From Halorussus caseinilyticus (GTDB lineage: Archaea; Halobacteriota; Halobacteria; Halobacteriales; Haladaptataceae): a DNA stretch of 64,000 nt. Positions 8,271-64,000 of the stretch are shown piece after piece. The notes below the pieces were generated by a model. The model searched no databases. It was not told the DNA's origin and saw only the letters and a program-made list of their open reading frames with translations. The stretch lies in assembly GCF_029338395.1 (NCBI RefSeq), contig NZ_CP119813.1:62001-126000 (forward strand), in the 5' to 3' direction. Position numbers and translations under genes: made by a program. The stretch's first letter is position 1, and each line of letters begins with the position of its first letter.

Positions 8271-8308
8271 TCGCCAGAACTAATACCGGTCCAACAGTCT
8301 CTTGAATC

Positions 8309-16679: not shown

Positions 16680-16844
16680 AAGATGGCTTCATAAGGGAGA
16701 GGTAATAAATGGTCAGTAAGGGCAGATTAGTTCTCATCGGCTAGAGCCCAAGTCATTCAGGGTCTATAACTTCTCCAACTCTACACACGCGGTCACACAC
16801 CCACAAACACGCGGTCAGACGCGCTCAGGAATCGACGCCCAGAA

Positions 16845-17002
16845 TTGCACACGCCGTGCGCTGGCCACGTGTGCAAAATGCTTCGCGTTCGACCGCGACC
16901 GCGCTCGCTCACTCATCCCGATCACGCCGTAGACGTGCTCCTTTATATACGAACTCCTGCTCAGTAACCGCAGAAAACTAGGTCACGGTGGTACGTGTGC
17001 AA
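16845..17002. repeat. Inverted repeat TTGCACACG/CGTGTGCAA with a third copy
   Basis: TTGCACACG at 16845-16853 is mirrored by CGTGTGCAA at 16868-16876, and CGTGTGCAA recurs at 16994-17002. They sit in a 600-bp stretch (16680-17280) in which I see no convincing gene. A TTTATATA promoter-like stretch lies near 16941. The repeats could be a regulator binding site or remnants of a replication region; neither is supported further. Confidence 0.35.
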
Positions 17003-17280
17003 TTTCATGCGCCTCAGGATGACCTATTCGCGCGAGCGTCGATTCGAAATTGGCGTGTCACACGGGAATTAGTAATACCGACTGCAGCCGCCGATATAGA
17101 CTCGGACGCCACCGCCTTTGAGGTCGTGCTCGACCTATCACCGCCAACGCACTCCAGTCCATGACCGAGGTGTTGGTCACGAACTCGTACTTAGTACCAG
17201 TCACTGGCCGCTAGAAGGCTGAAATCAGTAGGTGGCAAAGATATAGTCAAAGACTGAACAGGGTCACAAAGCCACCTGCC

Positions 17281-42023: not shown

Positions 42024-42074
42024 TTATAGTACTTAGTTCGGTTGTGTAGACCTGTACAACCGAATCACCAAAAA

Positions 42075-42089
42075 TATAAACTAGCTAGT
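42075..42089 (+). promoter_or_regulatory. TATA box and ACTAGCTAGT palindrome before integrase 1
   Basis: TATAAA at 42075-42080 is followed by the perfect palindrome ACTAGCTAGT (42080-42089). The same arrangement occurs at 47743-47757 before integrase 2. The box lies about 36 bp ahead of the leader ORF ATG at 42111. The palindrome overlaps the TATA box, so a bound protein would block initiation. Confidence 0.6.
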
Positions 42090-42110
42090 ACGAAAACCCA
42101 GCACCCAGAA

Positions 42111-42164
42111 ATGACTCGCCTTAGAATCACCAACCCCCGCAGAAATCCAGCTACACCCCCATGA
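42111..42164 (+). CDS. 17-codon leader peptide coupled to integrase 1
   Basis: MTRLRITNPRRNPATPP, ending in TGA that overlaps the integrase ATG (ATGA at 42161-42164). The identical arrangement, with the same length, exists before integrase 2 (47779-47832). The start lies so near the expected transcription start that it would be translated from an essentially leaderless mRNA, with the integrase read by termination-reinitiation. Confidence 0.5.
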   Translation: MTRLRITNPRRNPATPP

Positions 42165-43394
42165 GCGAGACCATCAACTGGAGCCACCACGACCTCAACG
42201 GCCTCGAAGAGCTATACTGGGATGAAATCGCGCCCGCGTTGCGTCGTGACGGACGCGACCCCCACACCCGACCGTCATACGAGACGCTCGCTGACCACGG
42301 CTACAGCGGCCTCGCCTACACTCTCCGCGAACACCACGATTTGACGCCCAAACAGTTCCTCTCCGAGACCGTCGGCCTCAAAGACGAGGACGACAGCACC
42401 GAGGGCTACGACTGGAACATCGAGACCGAACGCACCCAGAGCGCGTTCGAATCGTACCTCCGGTCGCTCAACCGTCGTCGCAACCTCGCCGACTCGACGC
42501 TTGCTTCGAAGCGCACCCACCTGTCGGCCTACGCCGAAACCTACCGCGACCTACACGGAACCGACGACCTCCTCGGACCGCTCGACGCCCACGACCAGCG
42601 CGGCGAGGAGATCGACCGCGCCTACGAGGTTCTCGACGTGTTCAACGCCGAGCGTTCGACCGACGCCTCGAAAATCGAGTACACCGCGACGGTCGCAAGT
42701 TGGTACCACCGCCTTGTCCGGCACGGCCGCGCGGAGTTCAACCCGCTCGAACACGCGACGACCGAATTCGGGTGGGAACGCAACAACCCCGACAATCACC
42801 CGCTGGACGCGAGCGACGTACGCGCGCTCTACGACGCCGCAGACTCGCTCGAAGACCGACTGCTCGTCGTCGCCCTCGCCGGATGGGGCCTCCGGTCGGG
42901 AGAGGTCGCCCGTCTCCATCAGCGCCAATTCGTCGGGTCAAACAGCGACGACCCGCACCTCGATTTCGAAAAACGGAAGAACGGACCGAGTTCGGTCAGT
43001 CTGCTGTACGGCCTCGACGTGTTGAAAGACCGCTGGAACGACCTCGCCGAAGACGAGACGTGGAACGGGTATCTCTTCCTCCCCGCAGTCCGAGTCCGGC
43101 CACATCGTCGGTGACACGATACGGTCGCGTTTTCGGACGCTTGCCGACGAGGCAGACGTACAGGTTCTCGGCGAGCGCCCGAAGCCCCACATGGCACGTC
43201 GGTTCTGGTACACGGCCTACCAGCAGGCGACTGCGGGCTTGCTCGACCGACTCGAAGGAATCGCCGAGGATCAAGGGAGCGCCTCAGCAGAGGTCATCGC
43301 ACAGAATTATCTCTCGGACGAAGAGGTCCGGCAGGCACGTCAAGACGCGATGCGGGAGAAGTTGGCCGAGGCGTTCGGGAACGCCGACCGATAG
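42161..43394 (+). pseudogene. Tyrosine recombinase 1 (XerC/D-like), frameshifted near its end
   Basis: Phage-type integrase that would be about 410 residues. The frame from ATG 42161 includes the core-binding SAM-like domain (RRNLADSTLASKRTHLSAYAETY) and catalytic Arg (AGWGLRSGEVARLH), but goes out of frame near 43085. The remainder, with the H-x-x-R box (PKPHMARRFWYTAYQ) and the Tyr-containing end (AQNYLSDEE), continues in another frame to 43394. Compared with integrase 2 the break equals one lost or two extra bases. The frame as read lacks the catalytic Tyr and His/Arg, so it would be inactive unless the indel is an artefact. Confidence 0.75.
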
Positions 43395-47649: not shown

Positions 47650-47727
47650 TCAGCGCTCGTCAGCAGTTTCGACTAGCTTTTCCAGAAACTCAACGGCTTT
47701 CGTTTTGGCAGTGTGGAAGATGTACAA
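47650..47727 (-). pseudogene. 3' gene fragment at the integrase 2 unit
   Basis: Frame lacking a start, ending YIFHTAKTKAVEFLEKLVETADER before TGA at 47650-47652. It is cut where the duplicated integrase promoter begins (about 47725), mirroring the fragment at 41760-42023 beside the other copy. Confidence 0.3.
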
Positions 47728-47742
47728 CCCAATCACCAAAAG

Positions 47743-47757
47743 TATAAACTAGCTAGT
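47743..47757 (+). promoter_or_regulatory. TATA box and palindrome before integrase 2
   Basis: TATAAA at 47743-47748 and ACTAGCTAGT at 47748-47757, same spacing as in copy 1, 36 bp ahead of the leader ATG 47779. Confidence 0.6.
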
Positions 47758-47778
47758 ACGAAAACCCAACACCCAGAA

Positions 47779-47832
47779 ATGACTCGCCTTAGAATCACCA
47801 ACCCCCACAGAAATCCGGCTCCAACCCTATGA
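47779..47832 (+). CDS. 17-codon leader peptide coupled to integrase 2
   Basis: MTRLRITNPHRNPAPTL, differing from the copy-1 peptide at a few positions but keeping length, frame and the ATGA overlap with the integrase start (47829-47832). The changes between copies include synonymous and amino-acid changes without any frame break, which supports selection on the reading frame. Confidence 0.5.
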   Translation: MTRLRITNPHRNPAPTL

Positions 47833-49063
47833 GCGAGACCATAAACTGGAGCCACCACGACCTCGACGGCCTCGAAGAGCTGTATTGGGATAAAATTGCG
47901 CCTGCGTTGCGCCGTGATGGACGCGACCCCCATACCCGACCGTCCTACGAGACGCTCGCCGACCTCGGATACAGCGGTATCAGCTATACCCTTCAGCAAC
48001 ATCACGACCTCACTGTCAAAGAGTTCCTCACCGACGTGGTCGGCCTCGACGACTCCACCGTTTCCAGTAAATCACCGGATGACTACGCTTGGCAGATATC
48101 GTCCACCGAGACCATCGACGAGTTCGAAGCCTACCTCCGCGCACTCGACCGCCGCCGGAAGCTTGCCGACTCCACGCTCGCCTCGAAACGCACCCATCTA
48201 GCAACCTATGCACAAATCTACGAGGACCTCCACGAGACATCGGACCTGCTCGCGCCGCTTTCTGAACCGTCAGAGCAGGCCGCAGAGACTGAACGCGCCT
48301 ATCAAGTTGTGGAGGTCCTCGACGACGAACTTGCGACCGACGGTACGAAATTCACCTACGTCGGGACGGTCCAGGGCTGGTATGACCGACTCGACCGGCA
48401 CGGCGCGGCCGCCTACAATCCCTTGGATGGCGTGACGACCGACTTCGGCTGGGAGCGCACAGAACCCGACAATAAGGCACTAGCGCCTTCGGACGTCCGC
48501 GCACTCAATAACGAGGCCAACACACCCGCAGATCGCCTCCTGCTCGTTGCACTCGCCGCGTGGGGGTTACGGTCGGGCGAGGTCGCTCGACTTCACGTCA
48601 ACCAGTTCGTCGGTGTCGACTCCGATGATCCACACCTTGAGTTCAAGGAGCGGAAGAACGGCCCGAGTACGGTCAGCCTCCTCTACGGCTTGGACGCCTA
48701 CCGGGAGCGCCAGCGCGAACTCGATGACTACGACGAGTGGAATGGCTACCTATTCCCCTCGACACAGGCCGAGGCTGGCCACATTGACTCAGATACTGTC
48801 CGGAATCGATTCCACCGACTCGCCGAACAGGCTGATGTCCGTGTCGACGGTGGCCTCCCGAAGCCCCACATGGCCCGTCGGTTCTGGTATAGCCAGTATC
48901 AGGACGCACTTGCAGACGTGCTCGACCGCCTTGATATTATCGCTGACGAGCAGGGAGTTCATCCGCAGACGTGGTGCATCAGAACTATCTCTCCGAGGAG
49001 AAACGTCGAGAGGCTCGGCGGCCTGCAATGCGGGAGTTACTTGCGGACGCGTTCGGCGAGTAG
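47829..49063 (+). pseudogene. Tyrosine recombinase 2 (XerC/D-like), last part out of frame
   Basis: Closely similar to integrase 1 over its length. In-frame parts include RRKLADSTLASKRTHLATYAQIY, catalytic Arg (AAWGLRSGEVARLH) and H-x-x-R (PKPHMARRFWYSQYQ). Near 48958 the frame shifts; the natural end (SSADVVHQNYLSEEKRREARRPAMRELLADAFGE, with the catalytic Tyr) lies in another frame and stops at TAG 49061-49063. As read, the catalytic Tyr is missing. Integrase 1 and 2 are in the same orientation about 5.7 kb apart. Confidence 0.75.
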
Positions 49064-49310: not shown

Positions 49311-51560
49311 TCACATGAACTCGTCCAGACTAGAGTTCCGACTGAACGAGGTGGTCCCGCCGCTTTCGCTCTCCACAGCATTCGCGCCAAACAGCGGTTC
49401 GACATCACGGTCGCCGTCCTGACGTTCAGCGAATGCCGTTAATCGCTTCGCCCGCGTCTGGCCGATCCGGTCCACGTTCTGAAGGAACGCTTCTAGCTGG
49501 TCTTCGCGTTTGACCTGTTCGTAGGCTTCGCCGAGACCGCCAGCTAATGTCTCGGTCTGGAAGTCGAATCGGGTATCGCCGGTGTCCATCTCGGTCAGGT
49601 AGTCGCGGAGGTTCGAGATCGTCACGCGTCCGACACCGTGGACGTGGCGGGCGACGGGTAGGTCTTCTCGCGGAACGCCCTTCTCGATGCTCGTCACGAA
49701 GTCGTCGTACCAGTCGGGTTTCTCGGCCTGAATCGCGTCGAACAGAGGTGTCGCCGCATCGAGCGTCCGTGAGAGGTTCCGTGCCGTCATGCGGATCGAC
49801 GTCGGGTCTACATTCGTCCGGTCCTCGATTTCGGTCGCGGGAATCCCCTGACTCCAATACCAGCCGAGGATACCGGTGACGATGGCAGGGTCTTCATCCG
49901 GCAGGTACTCGGCGTTGAGGAGTTTGTCTTCGAAGTCCGTCGAGAGCCCGTCGTGCGAGAGGTAGGCGTCCGTGAACACGGCGAACTGATAGAGCAAATT
50001 CTGAGCGGTGAACGTGTCCTTGGATTCGAGGTCGGCACAAAGGTCGTGGACGCTCCGTAGCGAGTACCCGCCGAAAACGTTGAAGTTAAATTCCACGGCG
50101 GCGCTTCCCTGCCGCGTGTTCTCGAATCGCTGTTCGGTCTCTTTCTCCCGGAGGAAGCCGAACTTCTGTAACCAGTCGGCCGCCTCCCGAAGCTTTTGAC
50201 GCATTCGCGTCCGCTTATCGACCGTTCCGTCGTCCCACGCACGGTCGCCGGAGAGCTGATGCCAGAATAGCGTCTCGGTCAGGAAGTCTTCTATCTCTTC
50301 GGGCGTGTCCCAGCCCATCTCGACCAGTTCGAGTATGAGCCAGCGGAGACCGTCGCCCGAATCGACGTGCGACGTGACCGGTTCGAGGTCAGGGTCGTTG
50401 AAGAACTGTTCGCTCGCAGCATCGAAATCCGAATAGAAAGGGTACGCGTAGCCCTTCTCGAATCCTTTGCCAGGCCGTGCAACACGGCCAATCCATTGGA
50501 TGTACTCGTAGGTGTGGATGTACTCCATGCCTCCGCCGGTCCATCGCTTCAGGTCACTAACGACGACCGATTGGACCGGGGCGTCGAATCCGTAGGCCAG
50601 CGTCGGAGTGCAGAACAACGCGGCGAGGTCGCCTTCCTCGTAGCACTCTTCGATCCAATTCCGAATCGAAGACGGAAGACTCGCGTGGTGGTAGGCGACG
50701 CCCTTCGACATGAGCGTCGCAAGGTCGTGAAGTTTTCTCGTTGGTTCCATCCCGTCGAGTCGGGACCGAAGCTCGGAGTGGAAGTTCCGGCTACTCCGGT
50801 CGGCGAATGCATTCGTCTCGGCCAGCCCCTCGGCTCGGGCTTCGGTCTTTGGCTTCGACCCGTTGAATACGAGGTACGGCGACTTGCCGGGATTTCCGCG
50901 CAGGTGGTCCACGATTTGGGTTTTCTTATCCGTCTGATCCTCTACCATTACCGGGTGTTCTTCGATCTCGATGCTTCGCTCCTCGTCGCTGACGACGAGA
51001 TTCGCGTTCATCCAGTCGGCTAGCTCTTTCGGGTTGCCGACCGTCGCAGACATGGCGAAGATGTTGACGTTGTTGTCGAGGACCGCCGCGATGGCTTTCT
51101 CAAGTCCCCGGCCACGACGCTCGCCGTAGATAATGTGGAAGTCGTCAAGGACTACGAGGTCGAGCGACCGAACGCCGCCCGTATCCCGGAGCATAGCCTG
51201 ATAGAAACTGTCGAAGGTTGCGACCGGAACGTCAGCATGCCGGTAGCCGCCCTGCTGTACATCATACTCCTCGTCTGCCCATGTGTTCAGTTCCTCTTCT
51301 TTTGCTTTCACCAGTTGCTTGCTCGGTACAAGATACGCGACACGCCCACCCGCGTCGAGCATCTGTTTCGTAACGGCCTCCGCACAGAGTGTCTTTCCGT
51401 TACCGGTTTCCGCGACGAGTAGGTGGTTGCCGCCGTCGAGAATTCGCGCCTCGAAGGCTTGGTGTTGGGTTTCGGTGAGCGAGTCGAAGCCGTGGGCCGC
51501 AAGAAGGTCTTGGACCAACGTCTCGTCTTCTGGCGAAAGTGAACCCGGGAGCGAGGACAT
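49311..51560 (-). CDS. Ski2-like superfamily 2 helicase
   Basis: 749 residues. Walker A AETGNGKT (50-57), motif II DDFH (139-142, replacing the usual DE-x-H), motif III MSATVGNPKE, motif V TPTLAYGFDAPVQSVVVSDL and motif VI YIQWIGRVARPGKG, followed by a winged helix and a C-terminal helix-hairpin-helix region (VGRVTISNLRDYL; VDRIGQTRAKRLTAF). This is the Hel308/Ski2 layout. It is divergent from the AddB-like gene 172 bp away, and such helicases accompany several defence systems, so I include it provisionally in the Argonaute/AddAB module. The Asp in place of Glu in motif II is unusual and may lower ATPase activity. Confidence 0.85.
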   Translation of the reverse strand: MSSLPGSLSPEDETLVQDLLAAHGFDSLTETQHQAFEARILDGGNHLLVAETGNGKTLCAEAVTKQMLDAGGRVAYLVPSKQLVKAKEEELNTWADEEYDVQQGGYRHADVPVATFDSFYQAMLRDTGGVRSLDLVVLDDFHIIYGERRGRGLEKAIAAVLDNNVNIFAMSATVGNPKELADWMNANLVVSDEERSIEIEEHPVMVEDQTDKKTQIVDHLRGNPGKSPYLVFNGSKPKTEARAEGLAETNAFADRSSRNFHSELRSRLDGMEPTRKLHDLATLMSKGVAYHHASLPSSIRNWIEECYEEGDLAALFCTPTLAYGFDAPVQSVVVSDLKRWTGGGMEYIHTYEYIQWIGRVARPGKGFEKGYAYPFYSDFDAASEQFFNDPDLEPVTSHVDSGDGLRWLILELVEMGWDTPEEIEDFLTETLFWHQLSGDRAWDDGTVDKRTRMRQKLREAADWLQKFGFLREKETEQRFENTRQGSAAVEFNFNVFGGYSLRSVHDLCADLESKDTFTAQNLLYQFAVFTDAYLSHDGLSTDFEDKLLNAEYLPDEDPAIVTGILGWYWSQGIPATEIEDRTNVDPTSIRMTARNLSRTLDAATPLFDAIQAEKPDWYDDFVTSIEKGVPREDLPVARHVHGVGRVTISNLRDYLTEMDTGDTRFDFQTETLAGGLGEAYEQVKREDQLEAFLQNVDRIGQTRAKRLTAFAERQDGDRDVEPLFGANAVESESGGTTSFSRNSSLDEFM

Positions 51561-51732
51561 GTTTAGGCAGAAAAGGCGTCCGTATTAAAGTGTTAGTCTT
51601 TTCTACATAATTAGTTTACCAATCCAGCAATTAAATGTCATACACAACTATCATTGCGGTAATGGTTTATAGGCTCTTCTGCCCACCTGAGTCTTAGGTA
51701 GAATTATAAACCTGCCGAAAAACAAAGAATGC

Positions 51733-54700
51733 GTGACAGTTACGTTTCTCAGCGGTAGTGCATTCGAACCCCTCCAAGAGGCGGTGTTCAAGCGGGCAGG
51801 CACCGTCGCAGGCAATCAGCCGGAATCGGTGGTATTTCTCGAAGCGAACGACTACAGACAGCCCGCTATCGCCGATGAGTGGGCAGCGGTGAATGATCCG
51901 TTACGACTCCGTGTAACCGACTTCGACGATTTGGTGTGTGAGTATTACGAGAGACTCGGCGGGCCAGGACGCGTCTCAACACCACTCTGCGGCGACAATT
52001 AATCGGCCGAGCACTGCGGGAAGTCACTGACGAGGCTCACTTTGCCGAAGCACAGGCTTACAACCGAGACGTCCGTGAGCTTCTGTCGGAACTCGCGGGG
52101 GCAGGTTATGATGATACCGCGGAGATCTGGTCATTTGTAGACGACCACCTCAGTGACCGGACGGCGAGTGTAGTCGGCCGAACTGCTGAATCCTTCGCTA
52201 CACTACGGACTGCGTGCGCTAGCGAATCGTACACTATATCGGACGCATATCAGGCCGTTCTGTCATCCGAGACCGAAGTCGAGAAACTCGTTGAGGCCGA
52301 GGTTATTGTCGTCTCTAACTACACTACCCTTTCACAAAACGAAACCGCACTTCTTCAGCGACTCGCTGAGAGCACCGAGGTCTTGATAGCGCTTCCACTA
52401 ACGGCGACACCTGAAACCGATGACCCGCCCTCTGAGAGTCTGATTGGAGCAAACGCATACACTTCCGATGCGGTTGAAACATACCGTTCATTGGCCGATC
52501 AATGCGTGCACGTCTCTGCGGAATCAGGGGGGGACGGTCACGGAAGCGAACTCGCCGTCGCCGCCGGGCAGATCTTCACTCGAACACCGGCAGCCGGCGA
52601 GAATGACACACCGCCTTCGGGGTTACACTGGCGTACCAGCCCAACACCGATCCGTGAAGCCCGTCAGGTAGCTCGGCGCGTCCGGCGGCAACTTGCCGAC
52701 GGCGCAGACCCTGAGGACGTGCTTGTCGTCGTCCCCGAATTGCTGTCGTACCGCGACCAACTCGCTGAAACCTTTGACGAAGTGGGTGTCCATGTCGCCA
52801 ACGTGGGCCGGCCACCGATACAGCAGACGCAAGTCGGGCGAGCAGCGCTGACGCTCGTTGACTGCTGCCTCTCAGACCCGACACAACAGGACGTGGCGGT
52901 ACTGTCGAGCAGTCCCGCAGTGACACTCGGCGACGACAGTGAAACTGTTAACACGACCACGATTCTGAGCCTGATCGACCGGCTCCCGACGACAGACCTC
53001 GATAGGCTTCAGCAGGAACTAGACGACGACCCCACAACGGCTATAGACCACTTCCGCGAGGATATTGAGACGGTTTCGTCTGCGTCACGAGAGAAAACTA
53101 TCGATGCTCTCCGCGAGCTCTTCGACGCGGTCGAATTAGAATCGAACGCGGAACAACTCGCGGATAGCGGTGAGGGAATCGAATTGACCGCGCTAGAGAC
53201 GGTTGAACGCGTCATTGACGCCGTCGAGACGGTAGAATTTTCCGCTGGAGAACGTGGGTTCGGAGATGGAACGTCGGTTGATCCGGTGCGGTACGTGGCC
53301 GACTCGTTAGAAGGGCAACGCGTCGCACAGCGGACACGCGACCAGAAGGGCGTCGTAAGGGTCGTCGGTCCACAGGACGCTCTCGGTCTGTCGTACGATC
53401 ATCTCCACCTCGTCGGTCTCACTCGGGTCGCGTTCCCGCCAAATCGGACCCGACCGGAGTTCTTCGAACGGATTTTCGAGACACTCCCGGACGTGGACAC
53501 AGTCGATAGGAGGGCTCGCGCCCGTTACCAGTTTGCAGTACTCGTTGGTGCGGCCGAGACAGTCCACGTCACCACACCGGAGACGGGAGCCGACGGCGAC
53601 GAGCGCCTTCCGTCGCCGGTACTAAGCGAATTTGCTCGCGTCACAGGACTAGAAGCAGAGACAGTCGACCGAGGTGTCGCCAGTGCTGGGGACCTCCAAC
53701 GCGAACTCGCCGGACTCAACAATCGGGAACGGGAAACCGCACTGTCTCAAGCTGTCGACGAGCAGATGATCCTCTTGCGGACTGCCGAGACGGTTCGACG
53801 AGGAGTCGAGTGTGTGGAGAATCGCGCGAAGACGAAATTGACTTCTCACGACGCCCAATTAGAGCCGGAGACGGTTGCCGAACTCCACGAGACGGAGGCT
53901 CTCAGTCCGACGCAGTTGCGTGACTACGCGCGATGCGGGTTCCGTTACTACGCCGAACGCGTCCTGGGATTCGAGGAGCCGGAAGAATTCCCCACAGAAC
54001 CAACGCCACTTGATCGCGGGTCGCTCGTCCACGACAGCCTCGAATCGTTCTATGCGGACCTGCTCTCGGATACGAATGGCCCTGTCGATCTCGCCGACTA
54101 CGAGCGTGCGGATCTGGAGGAGCGACTGTTAACGAGCGTCCGTACGGAACTGGACGCCCTCAACGCACCAACGGACGGTGCATTCGGCGACCGGTGGCTC
54201 GAACAGTTGCTCGCCGGGTTATCAACCCCATCTAAGAACGACCACTACGGTAGCGATCACCCACACAGAGGTCAAGACCGCGGGCTGTTTATCCGTTTTC
54301 TCGAATACGAATTGGGCGCTGATGACGCCGTCCTCGCGGTTGAGGAACCTCTTGACTTCGGCGCGAGCGGCGATGAAATCCGTGTCACAGTGCCAGACGG
54401 GAGAGAAGTAGCGATTCATGGCCGCATTGATCGTGTTACGGTCGAGGACGACGATGGCGTCGCTGGCATAGTTCACGATTACAAAACCAGCGACCCGACG
54501 ACGAAACTCACGTTCGACGGAGTCGAGTTCCAATTGCCGGTGTACACTATCGCAGCGCAACGGGAGCTACAGAAACAATACGGCGAGGACTTACGATATG
54601 TCGACGGAGGGTTCTACACAGTCGAGCCGCCAGCAGAGGTGACTCGGAAGCGGAGCCTTCAGAAGACGATTTGGCGGAAAGACGGCGACCGCGATGACTT

Positions 54701-54956
54701 CGACCGCTTCCTCAATAGGGACATCCCCGAGCGTATCGCGGACATCAGCGATAGCATCGGTAACGGTGGGTTCCACACCACGACACTGGAAGCGGACGAA
54801 GCAAAGTGCAAACACTGCCAGTTCCGAGACATGTGCGGTGTTCGCCATCATCGTCGCCGCGAGCGCGTCGCGGGCGTAGACGACGAGGGGAGTTACGTCC
54901 CACAGCGGGCTCGGTCTGACAGCTTCTACGACGACCTCGGGGGTGACGAGGCGTGA
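51733..54956 (+). pseudogene. addB: AddB-like helicase/nuclease subunit with RecB-type nuclease, one frameshift
   Basis: About 1070 residues once one base is restored near 51975 (GRV-LNTTLRRQLIGRALREV). The N-terminal part corresponds to the inactive-helicase half of AddB; a P-loop is not evident (FLSGSAFEPLQE). The C-terminal nuclease has LSPTQLRDYARCGFRYYAERVLGF, RGSLVHDSLESFY, GRIDRV and VHDYKTSDP (D, D-x-K), and a cysteine cluster C-x2-C (CKHCQFRDMCG) that with the earlier Cys would hold a 4Fe-4S cluster. This is the RecB/AddB/Cas4 nuclease type. GTG start, terminal GTGA overlap with the AddA-like gene. It would process or degrade linear double-stranded DNA. Confidence 0.8.
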
Positions 54957-57900
54957 ACGACCGCGAGGGTCCAGAGAAGATGACGGCAGACGACGCAAAC
55001 GATGCTGACGACGAGTTCGAGCCACCGACAATCAACAGGTTGCGCTCGAATCTCAGGATCACGTCGCTGTTACGGCCGGGGCGGGAACTGGGAAGACCAC
55101 GACGCTGACCCATCGGTACGTGAAACTCTTGGAAAGCGGCACGGACCCGTCTCAGATCCTGACGATCACGTTCACGACCGACGCGGCAGCCGAAATCCGT
55201 GAACGTGTCCGCGAGACCGTTGCCGAGCGACTGAGCGAGGCGGTGACGAGCGACTGCGGCAAGGAAGACGTCAGAGGCGACGACGCCCCGGACTACGAGC
55301 GGTGGCGGACCATCGCGGACGGGGTCGAGGATAGTTACGTCCATACGATTCACGAGGCATGTGCGCGTCTCCGTTCGGAACTCGCGGTCGAGGCGGGTGT
55401 CCACCCGGACGCAGAGACACTCGACGAGGCGGAGGCAGGTATGCTCGCCCGCGATGTGGTTCGGGAGAGTATCGACTCGATGCTGGCCGACGGTCACGAG
55501 CGCAGTGAGGACCTCCGGCTACTCACCCGACTATGGAGCCGCTCCGGCCTTGAGACAGTTCTCGTCGGACTGCTGGAGAGTCGGCCGATGAGTACAGATT
55601 GGGCCCGTCGGTGGGGTGAGGCCGATCCTGATGAGTACTTAGATGCGGTCTGGCGGTCGGTCTACCCCGTCGACATTGAGACGGCCCGCGAACTCCTGAC
55701 GGACGGCCGGGTTCAGCAGGCGCTCGATACGATTTCGGACATCGATCCCCAGGCCCTCGGAATCGATCCCGACGACGATGACGGAGCGGACTTCATTCGC
55801 ACGGTTGACGGCGTGCTGTCGGAGACCGGTGTTGCCGACGGGAGCGCCGAAGGACGCGACTGGCAGATGGCGCTCGACCGTCTGTGTGACCGAGTGACGA
55901 CTGGTAGCAGAACAGTATACAGCCAGGAGTATCGATACAAGGGTGCGAAAAAGAGGTGGGAAGCGCACGGCGAGAGCTGGGCGCGATTGAAAGACGCGGC
56001 TGACACACTGATTGATGTACTCAATCCCGAAAAGCGCCCGTTCGTCGGGGGCTGGGAGCAGATTACAACGGCAGTCGGTACGCTCCGGCCCTCGCGCGAG
56101 TATTCGAGACAGTCGCCGAACGATACAGTGACCGGAAGGAAAACCAGAACGCAGTCGATTTCGACGACCTAATCGAGGATACCATCACTCTACTGACAGC
56201 GAACGACGACTTCCGAGAGGCCGTCCAATCGAAGTTCGAGTACGTGATGATCGATGAGATGCAGGACACTGACCCGTCCCAGTGGGCGCTTGTTCGCCTT
56301 CTCGCCGGAGCCGACGACCCAACGACACCCCCCAACACCGATACATTCGACGCGAATCTCTTCCTCGTCGGTGACGAAAAACAGAGTATCTACCGCTTCC
56401 GCGGTGCTGACGTTACCACCTTCGGCACGGCGCGAGAGGACCTCAAAGCAGCGAACGGCGACACAGTGGCCGAGCGGGACGATGAGTACGAGACAGACCC
56501 AGCAGAAGTCGAACTAACGGGTAATTTTCGTACCGTCACAGCGCCGCGGGAGTTCGACAACGAACTGTTCGAGCGCGTGTTCAGGCCGTTCGATGAGCAA
56601 CGGGAACCGTTCAGAAGCTACATCACAGTCCCTCAACGGGGAACGTACGGCAGGAACGGAGGTGTCGGGTTCGGTCGAGTACCTCCTCGTCCCTAATGAG
56701 GACGAGCAGGAACTTCACGAGACGGGCTTTCTTGCGAATACACCTATCTTCGGCGATGCAGCCGACCGCGAGGCGCACGCACTGGCCGCGCGATTGACAC
56801 GGCTATTCGCAGACCCTCCGGAGGTGTACGACACGGAGACCGAGGAAATCCGCAAAGCGCGTCCAGAGGACGTGACGATCCTCTTCCGTGCGCGGACGCG
56901 ACTCCCACAGTTCGAGCGTGCGTTCGACGTCTGGGACATACCCTACACTGTCGCCTCTGGCACAGGGTTCTGGGATACACCGGAGATTCGGACTCTCATC
57001 GGGCTCTTCGAAGTGCTTGCGAACCCCGACGATGACGTGGCGCTGTATGGCCTCCTGCGGTCGGCACTGTTCGGATTCACCGACGACGAGATTGCTAACC
57101 CAGCCGCCAGCGAAGGGTCGCTGTGGGGAGCGATCCGCGACAGAGAAGGCGATCTCGGGGATGCCGCGGAACAAATCGAAGGATGGCGAGAACAAGCAGG
57201 CGTTGGTGACGCGACTGCCGCGCCGTCATGGGGACAGCTTCTCTCCGGGATACTTGCAGAGACTGGCTACTTCGGCGCAGTCGGGGCAGGCGATAGGCCG
57301 CAACAAGCCGTGGAAAACGTAGAACAATTCCGCGAACAGGTTCGGTCCTGGGCCGAAGGGGGGAACCCAACCTTAGCAGAACTACTGACGCGAATCCGCG
57401 ACCGACGAGAGGTCGAGACTCACGCGTCACAGGCGACTGTCCCGGAAGACAACGACGGCGTGCGACTCCGGACCATCCACTCCGCGAAAGGACTGGAGTT
57501 CCCCATTGTCGTCGTTCCCGAAGTGGGACGGGAGTTCAATTTCGGCAGCGGTGTCGACGACGACGGAAAAGTGTACCTAGGGGAGATTCCCGTCGGGGAG
57601 GGGACAGAACCAATTCTCGGATTGAAGGCTCCATCGCCGAACGACCCGTACGAGTCAACGGACACCCTCGCGCGGTCGGAGCTGAAGCGCCGCGGTAGGT
57701 GCAGAGAGCGCGCCGAACAGAAGCGACTCCTGTATGTCGCCGCCACGCGGGCCCGCGACCACCTCCTGATGTGTGGACTCCACGAACTGGACGACGACGC
57801 CGACTCACTCACACTGTCGACGTCGAAGCCTCACGGCGACGGGAAACGTTGGCGAGATTGGCTCCAACCAGTGCTCCTCGGTGACGGAACACTCAACCCT

Positions 57901-58794
57901 GACGACGATCACCCAGAGATAGCCGACACCCTCGATGCCCTTAGTGACGACAGTGTCTACGGGACGGTACTCGACGAGGCCGACTACACCGTCCGGGTTC
58001 CGCCCGCACCTCTCGAAGATTGGCGTGCAGTTCGGAAAGGCGATGACAGAGAACCCGACGAGCCGCTGGACGATAGAATCCCGTGCGTGAACGTCCCTGA
58101 GGCGGACATCTCGCAACCGCCAGTAGAGACGACCGCGACGACCTTCGCCGAAGCGGTCGCACCAGATCCCACAACCACCATCGCGGGCGATGCGGTGGGA
58201 GACACCGACGCGTATCCGGACCATGAGGGACTCGCCGAGAATCACGTCGGGACCGTGGTTCACGAACTGCTGGAGCACCGCCCACCACGCGAGGACTGGC
58301 GAGCCGTCGCCAACAGCCGGGCGAGCGGACTCGGCGACCCCACAGAGGAGGACCTCGATCAGATAGTTGAATACGCCGAGCGTGGGCTCAGCACCCGAGA
58401 AGCATTGGTCGAGTCGTACGACCCTAATACGGTTCACGAAGAGGTGTCTGTGGTCGCCCGATTCGACGCCGGACGGGTCGTCGGTGAGATAGATCTGTTG
58501 CTCGTAACTGACGAACGATTCGTCGTCCTCGACTACAAGACCGACGAAACGAGTACGCGCTCCGTTGACGACCTCGCCGAGAAACACTGGCCGCAGTTGG
58601 AGGTGTACGCCGCCGCACTCGCACAGAGCGATCCAAACCGTACCGTGGAAACCGTGCTGTACTTCACTGCCGCGGACACGGAACGACGGCAGGAGTTCGA
58701 CGCGTTTGATCTTGAAGATCTCCAGACCGATCTAGAAACGAGGCTGTCGCAGCTACGGTCGGCTAGCGAAAGTGAACCACTGGCACGACGCTAA
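54953..58794 (+). pseudogene. addA: AddA-like UvrD helicase with C-terminal nuclease, three frameshifts
   Basis: About 1280 residues across four open frames, joined near 55040, 56095 and 56625. All UvrD motifs are present in order: Walker A TAGAGTGKTTTLTHRY, ITFTTDAAAEIRERV, DEMQDTD, GDEKQSIYRFRGAD, LTGNFRT, TIHSAKGLEFPIVVV and YVAATRARDHL. A C-terminal PD-(D/E)XK nuclease follows (GEIDLLLVTDERFVVLDYKTD). This is the AddA plan, a helicase fused to a nuclease. Start GTG 54953 overlaps the AddB stop (GTGA). Every conserved motif survives, with no nonsense codon inside a motif, so the breaks look like recent or technical indels. Confidence 0.8.
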
Positions 58795-58893
58795 GCTCTC
58801 TCCCGCGTCACTCGCCTTAGTGTTGACACGGACGAAATCGGTGTCTGAAATGCAAAAAACTATTTCCCCGCCAATGTATTAGTTATTAATGTA

Positions 58894-59464
58894 ATGAGCA
58901 AGTGGCGAGCGAAGCGCCGATATGAAGCGAACCGGCGCTTCGGCGAGCGTGCAGATGACGCGCTCGTAGCCATATCTGTGCTTAAAGCGCGATCCGAGGG
59001 AATCGAACTCGGTCGTGACGACGAGGAGTTACGTGCGAAACTCGAAGACGGACGGGATCTCTTGATAACCGTCCGCGACGCTTTGGCCGACGAGTCCGGA
59101 CTGGATCCGTTTGAGTTGGCCGTCGCGGAGAACATCGCCGAGCAACGGAGGGGTTCGACTCGTCGGATGATCGAGAACCTTGACGCTGCCGCGGCCGAAC
59201 TTGCAACTGCGAGTGACGACTTAGAGTTCTACCGCGGACTGCAAGATGCGAAGAATTGGCTTGAAGCTATCTCCGGGGTCGCCACTAAAACGTCGCAGGC
59301 GACCGTCGACCAAATGCGAGGGAAGGTTGCCGACGGCACTCATTGATGCCCGCGTGAAGTCGCTCCGGGCGAAACAGGACTCGATTCGTGAACTGTTCGA
59401 TCGCGTTGACGTTGATATCGAGGCTAAAGACGACATATTCGACTCGATCTCGGACAGATTCTGA
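58894..59464 (+). pseudogene. Helical coiled-coil protein of the AddAB cluster, one frameshift
   Basis: The frame from ATG 58894 (MSKWRAKRRYEANRRFGERADDALVAISVLKARSEG) runs to about 59325 and then continues in another frame (EGRLPTALIDARVKSLRAKQDSIRELFDRVDVDIEAKDD) to TGA 59462-59464. About 190 residues, nearly all alpha-helical, basic at the start. It lies 99 bp after the AddA-like gene. Beyond the TGA the same frame stays open into the metallopeptidase frame, so the two could once have been one protein. Confidence 0.5.
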
Positions 59465-59524
59465 ACTGTCGAGGAAACCCGGGATGACTTTCACAGGTCG
59501 TACGATCAGGCACCGGAGGCCGAG

Positions 59525-60441
59525 GTGACGGACAGTCTGTACGAGAACTACGTCCGCGCAGTCGGCCGCTTGGCACGAGAACTGCACGTCCTTGAAACGG
59601 AGGCCGTGTATCTTGACCTCTATCAACACCAGAGTACCGGGCACCGCTCGCCCCAACTCGAACACGCCGCTGAAGTTTGTGAGGAACTGAAGCGTGTGTT
59701 TGACGTTGATCCTATGGTGATTCCGGTGATTGAAACGGGTACGCCTTCGATCCGATAGACGAAGAGCTGCCGTCTACAGGTGGCAAAGAGCTGAACTACG
59801 CCTTGATCCTGCCCCGCGAAGGGGACGACCGGCGCTACGACCCATTCCTGGCACACGAGATGGCACACGCCCTGCTGGACGAACATCCGAGACTACGATC
59901 ACGGTTCCGACGTGAGGTCAACGAGAGAGACGAGACAGTGAGCAGAGACGGCGAGTTCGGCAAGACCTGGACGAGTTGGTTCGAGGAGTTCTTCTGTGAT
60001 ATCTGCGGTCTCCTTGCTTACGGTCCGGCGTACTATTGCGCGGTGGTCCGGCGGTTAAGTCGATACGGTTCCTTCGAGTTCGAACGCGGTGAAGACGGGG
60101 ATCCGCATCCACCAGACGCGCTCCGGGTTGATGTCATCCGGGAGTTAGCCGAACGAGAATTTCCGAATCTCGCCGACTGTATCCGGGACGACGCTATTGC
60201 GTACGACCGTCACCTTGACGCACTCGAAACGGAGAAGCCGCCGGACTATGACACCTACGACGATGACGACTTAGTCCGGTTCCTTCTCGACGAGGTGCCA
60301 GATGTCATCGACCACGACCTCGACGCGCTCATCAGCGATATCGAGGATGGAGTCGATCCAGCAGACCGGCCCGAACGACAACACCGCCTTGAGGCAAACC
60401 GCGAATGGGTGCCGTCATACCCCCCTCAGAACGGCGGGTAA
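59525..60441 (+). pseudogene. HExxH metallopeptidase-like protein, one frameshift
   Basis: The GTG 59525 frame (MTDSLYENYVRAVGRLARELHVLETEAVYLDLYQH) shifts near 59735 into YAFDPIDEELPSTGGKELNYALILPREG, then reaches the zinc-binding HEMAH at 59854-59868 and a likely third ligand Glu in SWFEEFFCDICGLLAYGPAYY about 45 residues on. This is a gluzincin-type layout as in ImmA/IrrE-like peptidases, which cleave regulators or activate defence effectors. The C-terminal 80 residues are acidic and helical. Its end overlaps that of the convergent Argonaute gene by 16 bp. Inference: a protease component or sensor of the surrounding module. Confidence 0.6.
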
Positions 60442-62623
60442 CGAAGGTTCGACACCCAGTTGTGACCGAGTCGCCGATTCATCTCTCGCGTGAGCGAGAC
60501 TGTTATCGGGTCTTTCGTCCCTTTCGAGGAGACCCCCAGTTGAGTTCCGAGAGGAAGAATACGTCGCGGCCGGCCTGGAAAGCGTCGAAATCACCCTCTG
60601 CGGCCTTGACGTGACAGCGAAGTGTCTGCGGCGACCCCTGTGGTAGTTGTTCCGCGTCCGACGTGACGACGACAACCGTATTATCTCCGAGCCGAGCGTG
60701 TGCACCCATCTCCGGCATTCCCTCGTCGGCGTACAGCCGGTGCGGGCTTCTGTGAGTTACCTCGACACCAGCCCACTCGAAGTCGTCGGCGAGGTATTCG
60801 GTGTCCCGGAGACGTTCGATGGTCTCTTCGATTCCTTCGATCTCCTCGTTACCGAAGAACCCGTTCCGATGGATCGTCAGCGACTCGAACTCGTCGATGT
60901 CGGAACGGTCGCCGTCCACGACCTCGCGTAACGCGTCGCGGACTATCTTCTTCGCCTGACTCCGATCAGTCACACTACTGCGGTTGGTCGGGTTCTGATT
61001 TTCCGTCCGATAAATGATTTCGTTCGTCTCCCGGATAGCATGACAGCACTTGCAGTACCGCGGTCGCCTCCGTCAGCGTTGAATCCTAAGTACGCCTGCG
61101 TCGAGAGTTGCCCCTCGATAGTGAACGGTACGACACCCAACTTCGCCGCAAGTCCGACAGCAGTGTTCTCCACCACGTCCTCGTCGTGACCGTTCCTGTC
61201 TTCGATCCCGGTCTGCGTGACGACCTGGAGCGGGTGGCCGTCCAGTATATCGATTAACCTGTAATAGCTCTCTTCGTCGAAATCAGGGAGAAACCCGAGA
61301 GTGATATCGAACGGTTCCGAGACCTCCCGGCTCCGCAACATCCTCCTCAACGTCGTATGCGAACGGAGCCGGGCGCTCGTTCAACCGCAGACCCAACTTC
61401 TCTTCAGTATAATTCCGGATCGACTCATACGCTTCGAGCGCTGCCTCGTACTCCTCATCTGGGAACACGAGCGCCGTTTCGATCAGATCACCGAATGTAC
61501 GACGCGGACCGAACTTCTCAAGGTAGCCACTCTTGATCGGATTCCAGTATTCCTCAGTAATCTTCTGGCCGGGTCTTGTCTGGTTCTCCATCCCGACCGC
61601 CATCTTTACCGCCTCGTCACGACCGAACCAGAGAGTCGGATAACCGTACCGGGACACTTCCCGCCGTATCGGGTCAGTGTCAACCGTTACGTCCACGTTA
61701 CCGATCTCGAATCCGCGGACAACATCGAGAAACTCTCGGGTTCGCTGCCACCGTTCTTCAGGTCCGAAGGCTGCCAACTGACTTACTTCGTCCGGCCGCT
61801 TGTCAGTTGGGGCATAACGGAGCAAAGACGGAGCAGCAGAATATATGTCACCGCTATCGAAACTGACGAGTACGGTCGGTTCAGTGTCATCGATTCGTTC
61901 AGCAAAACGGTCACCGTACTCCTGACGAGCATACTTCAGAACCGACTTACCGTCTTCAACTTCCACCTCCGACACGGGTTCCTCCAGAATATCGACAAGC
62001 GTAACTGTCCTCCTGTCAGGCCGCTCAAAGACAAACTGGTCGTCTAACTCGGCCTCGATTCTGCCGCGAGACCACGAGTCGTCAGCAAGGTAATCAGCCA
62101 GCGTTTCTGAACTATGCGTTCCAAGTGTCGGATCAAGTGTGAGTGTCAGTCCGTCGTGAGCATCTAGCCGGAGCTTCACTCCGGGATAGACATCAAACCC
62201 ACGGAGGCTCCACTCAGCATTTTCTGCATACACCCGCTTCCTGTATCGCCTGTTATCGAACCAGTAGTCGTCCGAGCGTCCGATCTCCGACTCCAAAGCG
62301 TCGAAAATCGCCCGCTGTATCAGCTTGAAATCACTGTCCCGCGAAAAGTCGAGTTCGATCTCGCCGTGACGGTGGAGGTCCTGCCGGTTCACGGACTCGA
62401 CCGTTTTCCGACGATCATGCGCACCGACGACGGCGACGAACCACGTACCGTCCAACCGGTACCAATGTGCTCGGCCCCCTACTTCGTCTCGCAACCGTTC
62501 GGCATGCGCATTCAATAGAGGGAATAATGCGTCTTCCTCCGCCTCCGGTTTGGGATTAATCTCGTACAGTTCAGCACTGGTGTCGGAAAGCCCGACTGTG
62601 AAGGAGTTCAGGAACCGGCCCAT
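60426..62623 (-). pseudogene. Long prokaryotic Argonaute with degenerate PIWI site, about three frameshifts
   Basis: About 730 residues from ATG 62623. First frame (62623 to about 61310): N-terminal, PAZ-like and linker parts (YSAAPSLLRYAPTDKRPDE; GPRRTFGDLIETALVF). Second (about 61310-61010): MID/PIWI join, ITLGFLPDFDEESYYRLIDIL, ENTAVGLAAKLGVVPFTIEG, AYLGFNADGG. Third (about 61005-60525): LTIHRNGFFGNEEIEGI, GVEVTHRSPHRLY, FFLSELNWGSP; then GTKDPITVSLTREMN to TGA 60426. The order and spacing are those of PIWI. The expected catalytic Asp in the first strand is Asn (GFNAD against GID in NgAgo) and the HRD Asp is Asn (HRNG), so it should bind guide and target but not slice, as in long-B Argonautes. 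It is last in an operon behind the unknown gene and the SMC-like ATPase. Confidence 0.75.
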
Positions 62624-62674
62624 TAGATAAACGTGAACCGAGCAACGTAAAAATAATTGCGTTAGAGAGTTCGG

Positions 62675-63403
62675 TCAGTCCCCGGCCACACTTGGGTCTG
62701 GGGCCGCCGAGATCCGACTTAAGAGCCCTGATGTGGCTTCAGTTGCGGCCTCTGGGCTCAAACCACACTGACAGTAGATGTCGACGACCTCTGCGTAGAT
62801 TTGTTCGTCCGACCGTGTGGGCCTCGGGTCAATATATCCCTGTTCACGGAGGTACGCACGGAGTTCTTCGACCTTGTCCTCTCGGAAATAGTTGACCTCG
62901 TTCGAGAGGCCGTCAAGTACCGCCTCCGGCTTGCCAGCGACGCGGTCCGCCAGGTCACTTGCCTCGTCAATGAACTTATCACTGACAGCATTACTGGCTT
63001 CGAGTACGTCGCGGTCAACGGGTTTCCCTCGCCCAACCGTGTAGGCTTCGACGAACGTCTCCAGTGCAGTCCCGTGTTGACGAACACGCTCGCGGGCGTT
63101 CTCCGACAAGAGTCCGTCGACACCACCGACCTCCAGAAGCGAACGGAGGTGGCCCCACCGTTTGATCCCGGCGGTACGGAGTCTGTACAGTATTTCCGGA
63201 TCTTCGGTCGCGTACCAAAGATCCGCAGACGCTGCACCTTCCCTCGGATCGAACGTCGAGACATCGAGCTTTCGCCGGTACTCCTCATGGTCGTCCCCGT
63301 CTGGTGCCGGAACGTCTACCGCGTCAGCGGTGTCGAGCGCCGGCGGATCCGCAACAGGGTTGTGATCGTCTGCAGCCGTGAGGTGCTGGAAACCGTACTT
63401 CAC
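62675..63403 (-). CDS. Unknown protein between SMC-like ATPase and Argonaute
   Basis: 242 residues from GTG 63403, which overlaps the ATPase stop (GTGA), so the two are translationally coupled. I do not recognise a family. The N-terminal 60 residues are acidic and disordered; the rest is mostly helical (SENARERVRQHGTALETFVEAYTV; VSDKFIDEASDLADRVAGKPEAVLDGLSNEVNYFREDKVEELRAYLREQGYIDP). No catalytic motif is evident. Coupling to an SMC-like ATPase suggests a kleisin- or partner-type protein of that ATPase. The Argonaute gene starts 52 bp downstream. Confidence 0.7.
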   Translation of the reverse strand: MKYGFQHLTAADDHNPVADPPALDTADAVDVPAPDGDDHEEYRRKLDVSTFDPREGAASADLWYATEDPEILYRLRTAGIKRWGHLRSLLEVGGVDGLLSENARERVRQHGTALETFVEAYTVGRGKPVDRDVLEASNAVSDKFIDEASDLADRVAGKPEAVLDGLSNEVNYFREDKVEELRAYLREQGYIDPRPTRSDEQIYAEVVDIYCQCGLSPEAATEATSGLLSRISAAPDPSVAGD

Positions 63404-64000
63404 TCCCGACTCTTCTGCCGCCGCCTCCAGCGTTCCCGCTCATCGCTCCGAGCAGTAAAGTAGAACACCTGCCTCCCCTGCCGAGCGAGGTCGATTACGG
63501 TGTCTAATACGGTCTCTGCCCGCCGGTCGTCAAACGGTGCCAGCGTCTCGTCCAGCAATAATGGCGGGGCAGTCTCCTGCTCCCTGTGTTCGACGAAAGC
63601 GACCCGGACCGCCAGCAGTACTTGAACTCGCGTCCCACTAGATAGATCGTTCAGGTCAACACGCCGGTCCTCCCCGGTATCGTAAGCTCTGAACGTCCCA
63701 TCTTCGAGTCTGAGTTCGAACTGCCCGTCGGTGACGCGACGCAAGCTCGTCCGCCCGGCGGAATACTGGCTCCTGGTTACTAGTTACTGTCTCCGCCTCC
63801 ACGAACTCAAGAAGCGAGTCCGTGACTGCCTCTGCTACGTCTCTCTCAAGCTCTGATTCGAGTTCAGCCAGTGCCTGGTCCCGCTGCTGGACTGCGTCAG
63901 CGATTTCCGTCGACGTCTTCGCGCTCTCGATCTCGTTTTCCAACTCCGTCTTTTCCTGTAGCAGACGGTCGTACTCGGCTGCCGTCTCCCGCTTCTCTCT
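63400..64000 (-). pseudogene. SMC/YhaN-like ATPase, C-terminal part, runs off window; one frameshift
   Basis: A coiled-coil frame open to the right edge (ETAAEYDRLLQEK...AVQQRDQALAELESELERDVAEAV) shifts near 63745 into the C-terminal ATPase half: VDLNDLSSGTRVQVLLAVRVAFVEH (ABC signature), LLLDETLAPFDDRRAETVLDTVIDLARQGRQVFYFTA (Walker B, D-loop and switch region). The Walker A half must lie beyond 64000. The end resembles bacterial YhaN and Rad50-type ATPases. Start of the operon ATPase -> unknown protein -> Argonaute. It probably bridges or clamps DNA. Confidence 0.65.

What the first reader, a model, noticed from the sequence alone, without database searches (positions are those of the whole stretch)
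49311..64000. Candidate new defence module: degenerate long Argonaute with AddAB, SMC-like ATPase, metallopeptidase and Ski2 helicase
Two convergent gene groups, plus a divergent helicase gene, fill 14.7 kb with only genome-defence or DNA-processing functions: AddB-like and AddA-like helicase-nucleases, a coiled-coil protein, a HExxH peptidase, a long Argonaute, an unknown protein and an SMC/YhaN-like ATPase. Known inactive (long-B) Argonautes work by recruiting partner nucleases or other effectors, and RecBCD-type enzymes are known to supply or extend Argonaute targeting in bacteria. I know of no described system that couples a slicing-deficient Argonaute to a complete AddAB pair and an SMC-like ATPase. 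Hypothesis: AddAB generates guides from, or degrades, invader DNA marked by the Argonaute, with the ATPase as DNA clamp and the peptidase as switch.
Basis: partly seen in the sequence, partly recalled or inferred. Interest (0 to 1): 0.92.

Follow-up and report, generated by a model that had tools for sequence, protein, structure and literature searches.

The report
Argonaute paired with a metallopeptidase
Salt-loving archaea carry a little-noticed family of Argonaute proteins that have lost their cutting site and, in every copy examined here, face a metallopeptidase and a small helical protein, often beside a DNA-processing AddAB-like machine, which suggests a guide-directed defence that may act through a protease rather than by cutting.

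Summary
The gene families are mostly read correctly; the boundaries of the system are not. The window lies on what looks like an untrimmed circular plasmid contig. Its last 41.7 kb repeat its first 41.7 kb with about 105 small differences, and in that second copy the Argonaute is one intact 733-aa gene. The 'degenerate' frame is most likely an assembly artefact; the loss of slicing residues is real and family-wide. The 62675-type 'unknown protein' is the C-terminal part of the SMC/Rad50-like ATPase, whose Mre11-like partner lies just outside the window.

The real unit is three genes: Argonaute, HExxH/ExxCD metallopeptidase and a ~150-aa helical protein. Among 391 class genomes 11 have the Argonaute family, and full-length peptidase hits occur in those 11 only. 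The pair recurs in two genomes of the Thermoplasmatota phylum, once in the same convergent layout. AddAB-like helicase-nucleases touch the core in 10 of 17 haloarchaeal loci (2 more within about 12 kb), but AddB also occurs in 86 genomes without this Argonaute. ATPase and Hel308-like helicase are not core. Proposed mechanism: target recognition by the slicer-dead Argonaute switches on the peptidase; AddAB supplies or removes DNA. Linkage is strong; mechanism is inferred.

The parts
60426..62623 (-). Slicer-dead long prokaryotic Argonaute, 733 aa when read in the other copy of the same plasmid (C5:18853-21054); frame broken in the window copy at 60528, 61030 and 61330
59327..60441 (+). HExxH...ExxCD metallopeptidase (zincin-like), about 371 aa from a likely TTG start; 3' end overlaps the 3' end of the Argonaute gene by 16 nt; frame broken in the window copy at 59732
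58894..59346 (+). Small helical protein, 150 aa, gene overlapping the peptidase gene
54953..58794 (+). AddA-like UvrD helicase with C-terminal PD-(D/E)XK nuclease (frame broken in both plasmid copies, at different places); start carried over from the other copy
51733..54956 (+). AddB-like protein with C-terminal PD-(D/E)XK nuclease; start carried over from the other copy; window frame broken at 51967
62675..64000 (-). C-terminal part of an SMC/Rad50-like ATPase (gene continues beyond the window to about C5:128163; includes the '62675-type protein'); facultative neighbour; window frame broken at 63417 and 63744
49311..51560 (-). Hel308-like (Ski2 family) helicase, 749 aa, divergent from AddB; no counterpart above 45 bits in the 10 related loci searched

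Best explanation
The core is a three-gene Argonaute-peptidase system. Shown: the Argonaute has the long pAgo fold but lacks the PIWI catalytic aspartates in the 11 haloarchaeal members aligned (two keep the first one only); the peptidase keeps its metal-ligand motif across two archaeal phyla; the small protein gene overlaps the peptidase gene; the three are linked and under purifying selection. Inferred: the guide-loaded Argonaute finds invader nucleic acid but cannot cut it. Pairing instead activates the peptidase-small-protein complex. The peptidase then cleaves the small protein (as ImmA/IrrE-type peptidases cleave repressors; recalled) or a cell protein, which releases an immune response, possibly abortive. 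AddAB-like helicase-nucleases beside the core would resect invader DNA ends, feed the Argonaute with guides or single strands, and clear the DNA. AddAB is an exchangeable helper and not a constitutive part. The Mre11-Rad50-like pair in this plasmid is another facultative neighbour.
For: Argonaute family in 11 of 391 class genomes at E<1e-50. The peptidase profile, built from those 11 loci, finds full-length hits in those 11 by construction; the test is that none of the other 380 genomes has one, the 16 further genomes listed having only weak partial hits to the N-terminal helical part. Ago and peptidase are neighbours in all 17 haloarchaeal loci examined (one, L099, with an IS5-bearing insert between them; one, L063, broken). 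In 389 genomes of the L066 phylum the peptidase profile found 2: L066's own genome, which was in the profile, and G497, an independent hit that also lies beside an Argonaute. Convergent 3' overlaps of 4-20 nt in 15 of 16 measured, a 1-nt gap in the other. Small protein in the same 5 plasmid records as Ago and peptidase, plus one 39-aa fragment elsewhere. Ago and peptidase trees share (own,(L098,(G108,(G031,L097)))), (G140,G058), (G310,G065), (G269,G048) and (G335,(L060,L099)). dN/dS 0.05-0.20 in the 15 comparisons where it could be computed. Invariant H-E-H-E-D in 16 of 16 peptidases. PIWI aspartates kept in 17 of 17 other haloarchaeal long pAgos aligned. AddAB-like pairs in at least three forms.
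Against: No activity of any component has been tested. The peptidase-as-effector step rests on linkage and motif only; no fold match reached E<=0.001. In the two loci of the other phylum the Argonaute keeps its catalytic aspartates (L066 by alignment; L127 by eye from the printed sequence), so the peptidase is not simply a substitute for lost slicing. L066 lacks a recognised small protein, and the small protein of L127 is positional only (3.7 bits). AddAB is not seen in 5 of 17 loci and is common elsewhere. The peptidase tree is unresolved outside the shared groups: it leaves G023 and L062 unplaced, where the Ago tree joins them firmly to G335. Defence function is not shown; no target is known.
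Confidence: 0.5

Rival explanations
1. AddAB-like enzymes are the effector and the peptidase is a regulator: the peptidase cleaves the small protein (a repressor or antitoxin) on infection, which turns on AddAB and Argonaute.
For: Small protein and peptidase genes overlap by 20 nt in three annotated records, as in regulator-peptidase pairs of the ImmR/ImmA kind (recalled); weak M78/IrrE signal in 4 of 11 peptidases (best 0.023) and IrrE 3dte at E 0.22. AddA and AddB keep nuclease domains.
Against: 5 of 17 loci show no AddAB-like pair in the range read; the small protein has no consistent Pfam match, DNA-binding or other.
Confidence: 0.25
2. One reading: Argonaute, AddAB, SMC-like ATPase, peptidase and Ski2 helicase work as one defence module.
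For: All lie together here; a related Mre11-Rad50-like pair lies near the Argonaute in G065, another type directly upstream of it in G140, and one beside AddAB in G178.
Against: The ATPase is in 24 of 391 genomes and overlaps with the Argonaute family in 2; no Hel308-like hit above 45 bits in the 10 related loci; AddB in 86 genomes without this Argonaute family.
Confidence: 0.05
3. The core is a housekeeping or regulatory unit (for instance replicon control or DNA repair on plasmids) and not immune.
For: Five named plasmid records carry it; other copies lie on a chromosome (L062) or on contigs of over 2.5 Mb (G140, G335).
Against: Patchy distribution (11 of 391), varied surroundings with restriction and other defence-type genes, two copies on one plasmid.
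Confidence: 0.15
4. Hitch-hiking: the genes travel together as a mobile cassette without functional interaction.
For: Horizontal spread is likely (L097 and G031 96% identical in AddB and Ago).
Against: The trio stays together while most other neighbours differ between loci, down to 25% identity and in another phylum, under purifying selection.
Confidence: 0.05

Closest known systems
Long-B pAgo systems BPAN, BPAS, BPAM (Song et al. 2023, PMC10620215; start of abstract in a listing and passages seen)
   Same: Full-length Argonaute without slicing site, linked to a separate partner gene that acts as effector
   Different: Partners there are a RecB-like nuclease, a Sir2 protein and a membrane protein; the word peptidase does not occur in the main text. 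The Argonaute here matches VbAgo and PliAgo better than the PDB entry named EcAgo (3.9e-47 and 1.2e-36 against 3e-6; that this entry is the long-B EcAgo is assumed).
PliAgo group of DNA-guided RNA-targeting pAgos (PMC9360449; passages seen)
   Same: Among the closest solved structures; their gene is preceded by a PD-(D/E)XK nuclease distantly related to Cas4, as is the relative L066 (Csa1/Cas4-like)
   Different: PliAgo-type are active slicers; peptidase and protease do not occur in the main text
APAP: haloarchaeal long-A pAgo with phospholipase D (Cheng et al. 2024, PMC11442185; abstract and section 6 read)
   Same: Haloarchaeal long pAgo with a conserved partner
   Different: That paper reports that haloarchaeal pAgos consistently keep DEDX; this family does not, and its partner is a peptidase
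pPIWI-RE with fused zincin-like metallopeptidase (Burroughs et al. 2013, PMC3702460; passages seen)
   Same: A zincin joined to a PIWI module on rare occasions
   Different: A different PIWI family, a fusion, and one the authors thought might be an annotation artefact
RecBCD and guide DNA supply (PMC10269773; passages seen)
   Same: RecBCD takes part in or shapes the small DNAs bound by pAgos in E. coli
   Different: There it is the host's general repair enzyme and not encoded beside the Argonaute; the paper also notes that RecBCD is not required for guide production by CbAgo

Membership tests
Prokaryotic Argonaute (long) | Argonaute fold with N, PAZ, MID and PIWI | tested here: met
   PADLOC model over residues 4-719; profile match to VbAgo over positions 81-712; Foldseek PliAgo E 1.5e-38, TMq 0.71, model pLDDT 77.5 with low confidence in the last ~35 residues
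Prokaryotic Argonaute (long) | Gln and Lys of the MID pocket (motif recalled) | tested here: met
   Q467 and K495 invariant in 11 of 11; that these are the pocket residues is recalled
Active long-A pAgo | DEDX catalytic tetrad | tested here: not met
   First Asp is S/N in 9 of 11 and D in 2; third is N in 9 and G in 2; no acidic residue at the aligned last position in 11 of 11; the aligned VbAgo Asp residues are those changed in VbAgo-DM
Long-B pAgo systems (BPAN/BPAS/BPAM) | Inactive PIWI | tested here: met
Long-B pAgo systems (BPAN/BPAS/BPAM) | Partner is a RecB-like nuclease, Sir2 or membrane protein | tested here: not met
   The constant partners in 17 loci are the peptidase and the small protein; AddAB-like pairs touch it in 10 of 17
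Long-B pAgo systems (BPAN/BPAS/BPAM) | Placement in the long-B clade | tested here: inconclusive
   No tree with bacterial reference pAgos; better profile match to VbAgo/PliAgo than to EcAgo
APAP (pAgo with PLD) | PLD-family partner gene beside ago | tested here: inconclusive
   No product named PLD in the 5 annotated plasmid regions, many products being hypothetical; not searched by profile
AddAB | UvrD helicase with PD-(D/E)XK in AddA, and PD-(D/E)XK in AddB | tested here: met
   scores of the pieces stay below the NCBIfam equivalog cut-offs, so AddAB-like and not a proven orthologue
Zincin metallopeptidase | HExxH plus downstream Glu ligand | tested here: met
   H177, E178, H181, E221, D225 invariant in 16 of 16; metal binding itself not tested
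Peptidase M48 or M78 | Sequence or fold match to the family | tested here: inconclusive
   VIA: BepA 6ait Z 6.9, 4.5 A, 140 aligned; ZMPSTE24 4aw6 Z 6.8, 7.9 A, 201 aligned, both in the range of common arrangements; M78 in 4 of 11 at best 0.023; hhalign to two M48 proteins probability 0.24%
Mre11-Rad50-like pair | Metallophosphoesterase beside an AAA/SMC ATPase | tested here: met
   P0003 Mre11_Halo 1.5e-13 (far below its equivalog cut-off), Metallophos 6.3e-10; P0002 AAA_23 1.4e-5 (just below its cut-off)

The most novel reading that the evidence does not exclude
A guide-directed Argonaute signals through proteolysis: recognition of invader nucleic acid switches on a bound metallopeptidase, so that the Argonaute works as a sensor for a protease response. 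An AddAB-like helicase-nuclease, recruited more than once, supplies the guides. The partnership is older than the loss of slicing and spans at least two archaeal phyla.
Probability: 0.35. Interest if true: 0.9.

Novelty: new variant of a known kind. Interest (0 to 1): 0.74.

Why it matters
The pAgo systems in the papers seen here act by cutting nucleic acid or through nuclease, TIR/Sir2 or membrane partners. An Argonaute family whose constant enzyme partner is a metallopeptidase would add protease signalling to guide-directed immunity. It also runs against the statement that haloarchaeal pAgos consistently keep DEDX (PMC11442185). In the five plasmid records both proteins are annotated as hypothetical, so the family is easy to overlook. 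The repeated joining with AddAB-like enzymes would make the open question of where pAgo guides come from testable in a genetically tractable group of archaea.

Tried and rejected
Degenerate Argonaute pseudogene: rejected. The other copy on the contig is intact and the family is under purifying selection. A true tandem duplication cannot be fully excluded from the assembly alone; scattered indels (68 of 105 differing positions) point to low-quality overlapping ends.

Separate 62675-type protein: rejected. ATPase and Hel308 as core parts: rejected on distribution. AddAB as a dedicated partner: rejected as exclusive, kept as recurrent.

Phage, viral and wider searches: no Argonaute match in 50,697 phage records; no relative confirmed in viral contigs for Ago or peptidase (pattern-based scans); no plasmid match for the L066 peptidase. 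The genome-contig scan confirmed only 9 loci from 23 pattern matches, so it is far from exhaustive.

Fold of the peptidase: no Foldseek PDB or BFVD match at E<=0.001 (a viral M48 peptidase appears at E 0.27); its profile finds mainly coiled coils and a faint IrrE match in the PDB; profile comparison with two M48 proteins gave nothing. No structure was predicted for the small protein (both jobs used); its Pfam hits are weak and inconsistent.

Placement of the relatives in the other phylum: L066 joins the family at 94/89, not firm; L127 is a long branch of unsure place.

Rows dropped or not used: the 473-aa pAgo L037 was left out of the tree and of the 17-of-17 count; the second distant pAgo copies in G065 and G269 and the broken L063 copy were not aligned. 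One search used the 11 rows of A1 only, without the later loci. The Ago frame of L060 used in the trees is a 590-aa piece. The 15 dN/dS values come from 5 of 6 pairs, because dS was saturated for G335-G023. One search printed only hits above 45 bits.
Full report
WHAT IS IN THE WINDOW. The window is C5:62001-126000 of a 4.39-Mb genome in 5 contigs, a haloarchaeon by its relatives. C5 is 145,234 bases long. Its first 41,666 bases repeat its last 41,666 bases (103,569-145,234) at 99.75% identity with 37 substitutions and 68 gap positions. The simplest reading is an untrimmed circular plasmid of about 103.6 kb with poor-quality ends, and the whole finding lies in the doubled part. In the other copy the Argonaute is a single 733-aa frame, C5:18853-21054, which aligns end to end with 46-47% identical homologues. 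The 62675-type protein is continuous with the SMC/Rad50-like ATPase there, and the ATPase model built with that part covers single full-length frames in 17 of the other 23 genomes that hold it. Upstream of the ATPase and outside the window lies an Mre11-like phosphoesterase gene. AddB-like, AddA-like and Hel308-like identities hold; both copies carry frameshifts in AddA and AddB at different places.

THE ARGONAUTE IS REAL AND SLICER-DEAD AS A FAMILY. The profile of 11 relatives matches VbAgo (3.9e-47) and PliAgo (1.2e-36) in the PDB, and the predicted model (pLDDT 77.5) matches PliAgo at E 1.5e-38. Pfam Piwi is found in only 3 of the 11 members and not in the window's own protein, which may be why these genes are annotated as hypothetical in all five plasmid records. 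In the 11 aligned members the three catalytic Asp positions read S/N (D in two), N (G in two), and no acidic residue at the last; all 17 other haloarchaeal long pAgos aligned keep all three, and a 473-aa pAgo-like protein does not.

THE CONSTANT PARTNERS. Searching 391 class genomes, the Argonaute family is in 11 (E<1e-50), and 18 further genomes have only distant matches. The peptidase profile was built from those 11 loci, so it finds them by construction; the informative result is that none of the other 380 genomes has a full-length hit, 16 of them having weak hits confined to the N-terminal helical part. With further loci there are 17 haloarchaeal loci: own, G031, G108, G140, G058, G023, G310, G335, G065, G269, G048, L060, L062, L063, L097, L098, L099. 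In every one the Argonaute faces a two-gene unit of small protein and peptidase, with an IS5-bearing insert in L099 and broken genes in L063. The small protein of the two most distant loci, G269 and G048, forms its own cluster by BLAST and is aligned with the others in A3. The convergent genes overlap by 4-20 nt in 15 of 16 loci measured (L127 is one of them), and small protein and peptidase overlap by 20 nt in three annotated records (L097 is annotated with a later start). In plasmids the small protein occurs in the same five records as Ago and peptidase, plus one 39-aa fragment. In 389 genomes of the phylum of L066 a peptidase profile that contained L066's own peptidase found that genome and one independent genome, G497; both have the peptidase beside an Argonaute. 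In the G497 locus (L127) the layout is the same as in haloarchaea: Argonaute convergent with the peptidase, then a 127-aa gene of no proven homology. In L066 Argonaute and peptidase run in the same direction after a Csa1/Cas4-like nuclease. Both of these Argonautes keep the catalytic aspartates (for L127 read by eye from the sequence). The Ago and peptidase trees share five groupings but the peptidase tree is unresolved elsewhere, and dN/dS is 0.05-0.20 in the 15 comparisons computed. H, E, H, E and D of the metal site are invariant in 16 of 16 peptidases from two phyla.

ADDAB. An AddAB-like pair touches the core in 10 of 17 haloarchaeal loci: own, G031, G108, G335, L097, L098 (one type); L062, G065, G048 (a second type, a PD-(D/E)XK protein plus an AddA/UvrD-like one); G269 (a third, split type). 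In the second and third types Pfam was run on the PD-(D/E)XK partner of G065 and on two G269 proteins only; the AddA-like partners rest on BLAST scores of about 50-60 bits. A pair lies about 5 kb away in G023 and 12 kb in G140, and none was seen in G058, G310, L060, L063 and L099 within the range read, which was about 7 kb on one side for G310 and 10 kb for L060. G335 has it while its close relative L099 (Argonaute 90% identical) and L060 do not, so gain or loss is fairly recent. AddB of the first type is in 90 of 391 genomes at E<=1e-10, among them 4 of the 11 Argonaute-family genomes, and in all 4 it lies beside the Argonaute. Genome-level presence is therefore not clearly enriched (4 of 11 against 86 of 380), but position is. 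Of 20 AddB loci chosen from that search, five of them because a pAgo hit lay on the same contig, other pAgos with intact residues lie close by in those five: directly beside AddA in G100, G159 and G074, about 3-4 kb away in G124 and about 7 kb in G061. The Rad50-like ATPase is in 24 of 391 genomes, only own and G065 among the 11.

MECHANISM. Shown: linkage, selection, the lost slicing site, the kept peptidase site. Inferred: the Argonaute is the sensor and the peptidase the response enzyme, with the small protein as its substrate or regulator; AddAB-like enzymes process invader DNA and may provide guides, as RecBCD takes part in producing the small DNAs loaded into pAgos in E. coli, although it is reported as not required in the case of CbAgo (PMC10269773, passages). 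Because the relatives in the other phylum keep the slicer site, the peptidase partnership probably predates its loss (tree support for L066 94/89, not firm).

WHAT IS KNOWN. Searches in the open PMC library and word finds in seven papers (PMC4158269, PMC10620215, PMC12988326, PMC6299218, PMC2743648, PMC3702460, PMC9360449) gave no pAgo-peptidase system. The nearest is a remark that pPIWI-RE is on rare occasions fused to a zincin-like metallopeptidase (PMC3702460). PMC6299218 lists UvrD plus PD-(D/E)XK proteins among pAgo neighbours, so the helicase-nuclease theme is known in outline. Subscription papers, preprints and supplements were not covered.

VERDICT. A probable assembly error produced the 'degenerate' look, and the proposed multi-part module does not hold. 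What remains is a conserved Argonaute-metallopeptidase-small protein unit, not found described in those searches, with AddAB-like enzymes as a recurrent helper: a new variant of pAgo systems.

Noticed in passing
window 41569-64000 and C5:1-22431: The end of the window is repeated at the start of the same contig; the whole repeat is 41.7 kb with about 105 small differences, so any broken frame seen here should be checked against the other copy.
   Followed up: yes
L120 (G178) 3211-15556: An Mre11-Rad50-like pair (85% identical to that of G065) lies divergent from an AddB-AddA pair with no Argonaute in the 20 kb read: a possible separate AddAB plus Mre11-Rad50 system.
   Followed up: partly
L115 (G100) 4804-14405 and L116 (G159) 3776-13362: A pAgo with intact catalytic residues (747 aa) follows AddB-AddA on the same strand, which looks like an AddB-AddA-pAgo operon and a second pAgo-AddAB link.
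   Followed up: partly
L118 (G124) 3536-17236: Own-type AddB-AddA with a small-protein homologue and an ATPase C-terminal piece, but no peptidase hit in that genome, and an active-type pAgo close by: perhaps a decayed or rewired locus.
   Followed up: no
window 42054-43317 and 47721-48993: Two regions about 73% identical; the second holds a phage-integrase family protein (428 aa, PF00589, 9.9e-8).
   Followed up: partly
L004:15273-16442 (C5:35273-36442): A protein with weak, below-cutoff ArdC N-terminal and M78 peptidase matches, possibly an anti-restriction factor, on the same plasmid.
   Followed up: no
L060 and L063 (Halosimplex aquaticum plasmid): Two diverged copies of the same Argonaute island on one plasmid: one with the layout kept (Argonaute frame called as 590 aa), one with broken Argonaute and peptidase frames.
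   Followed up: partly
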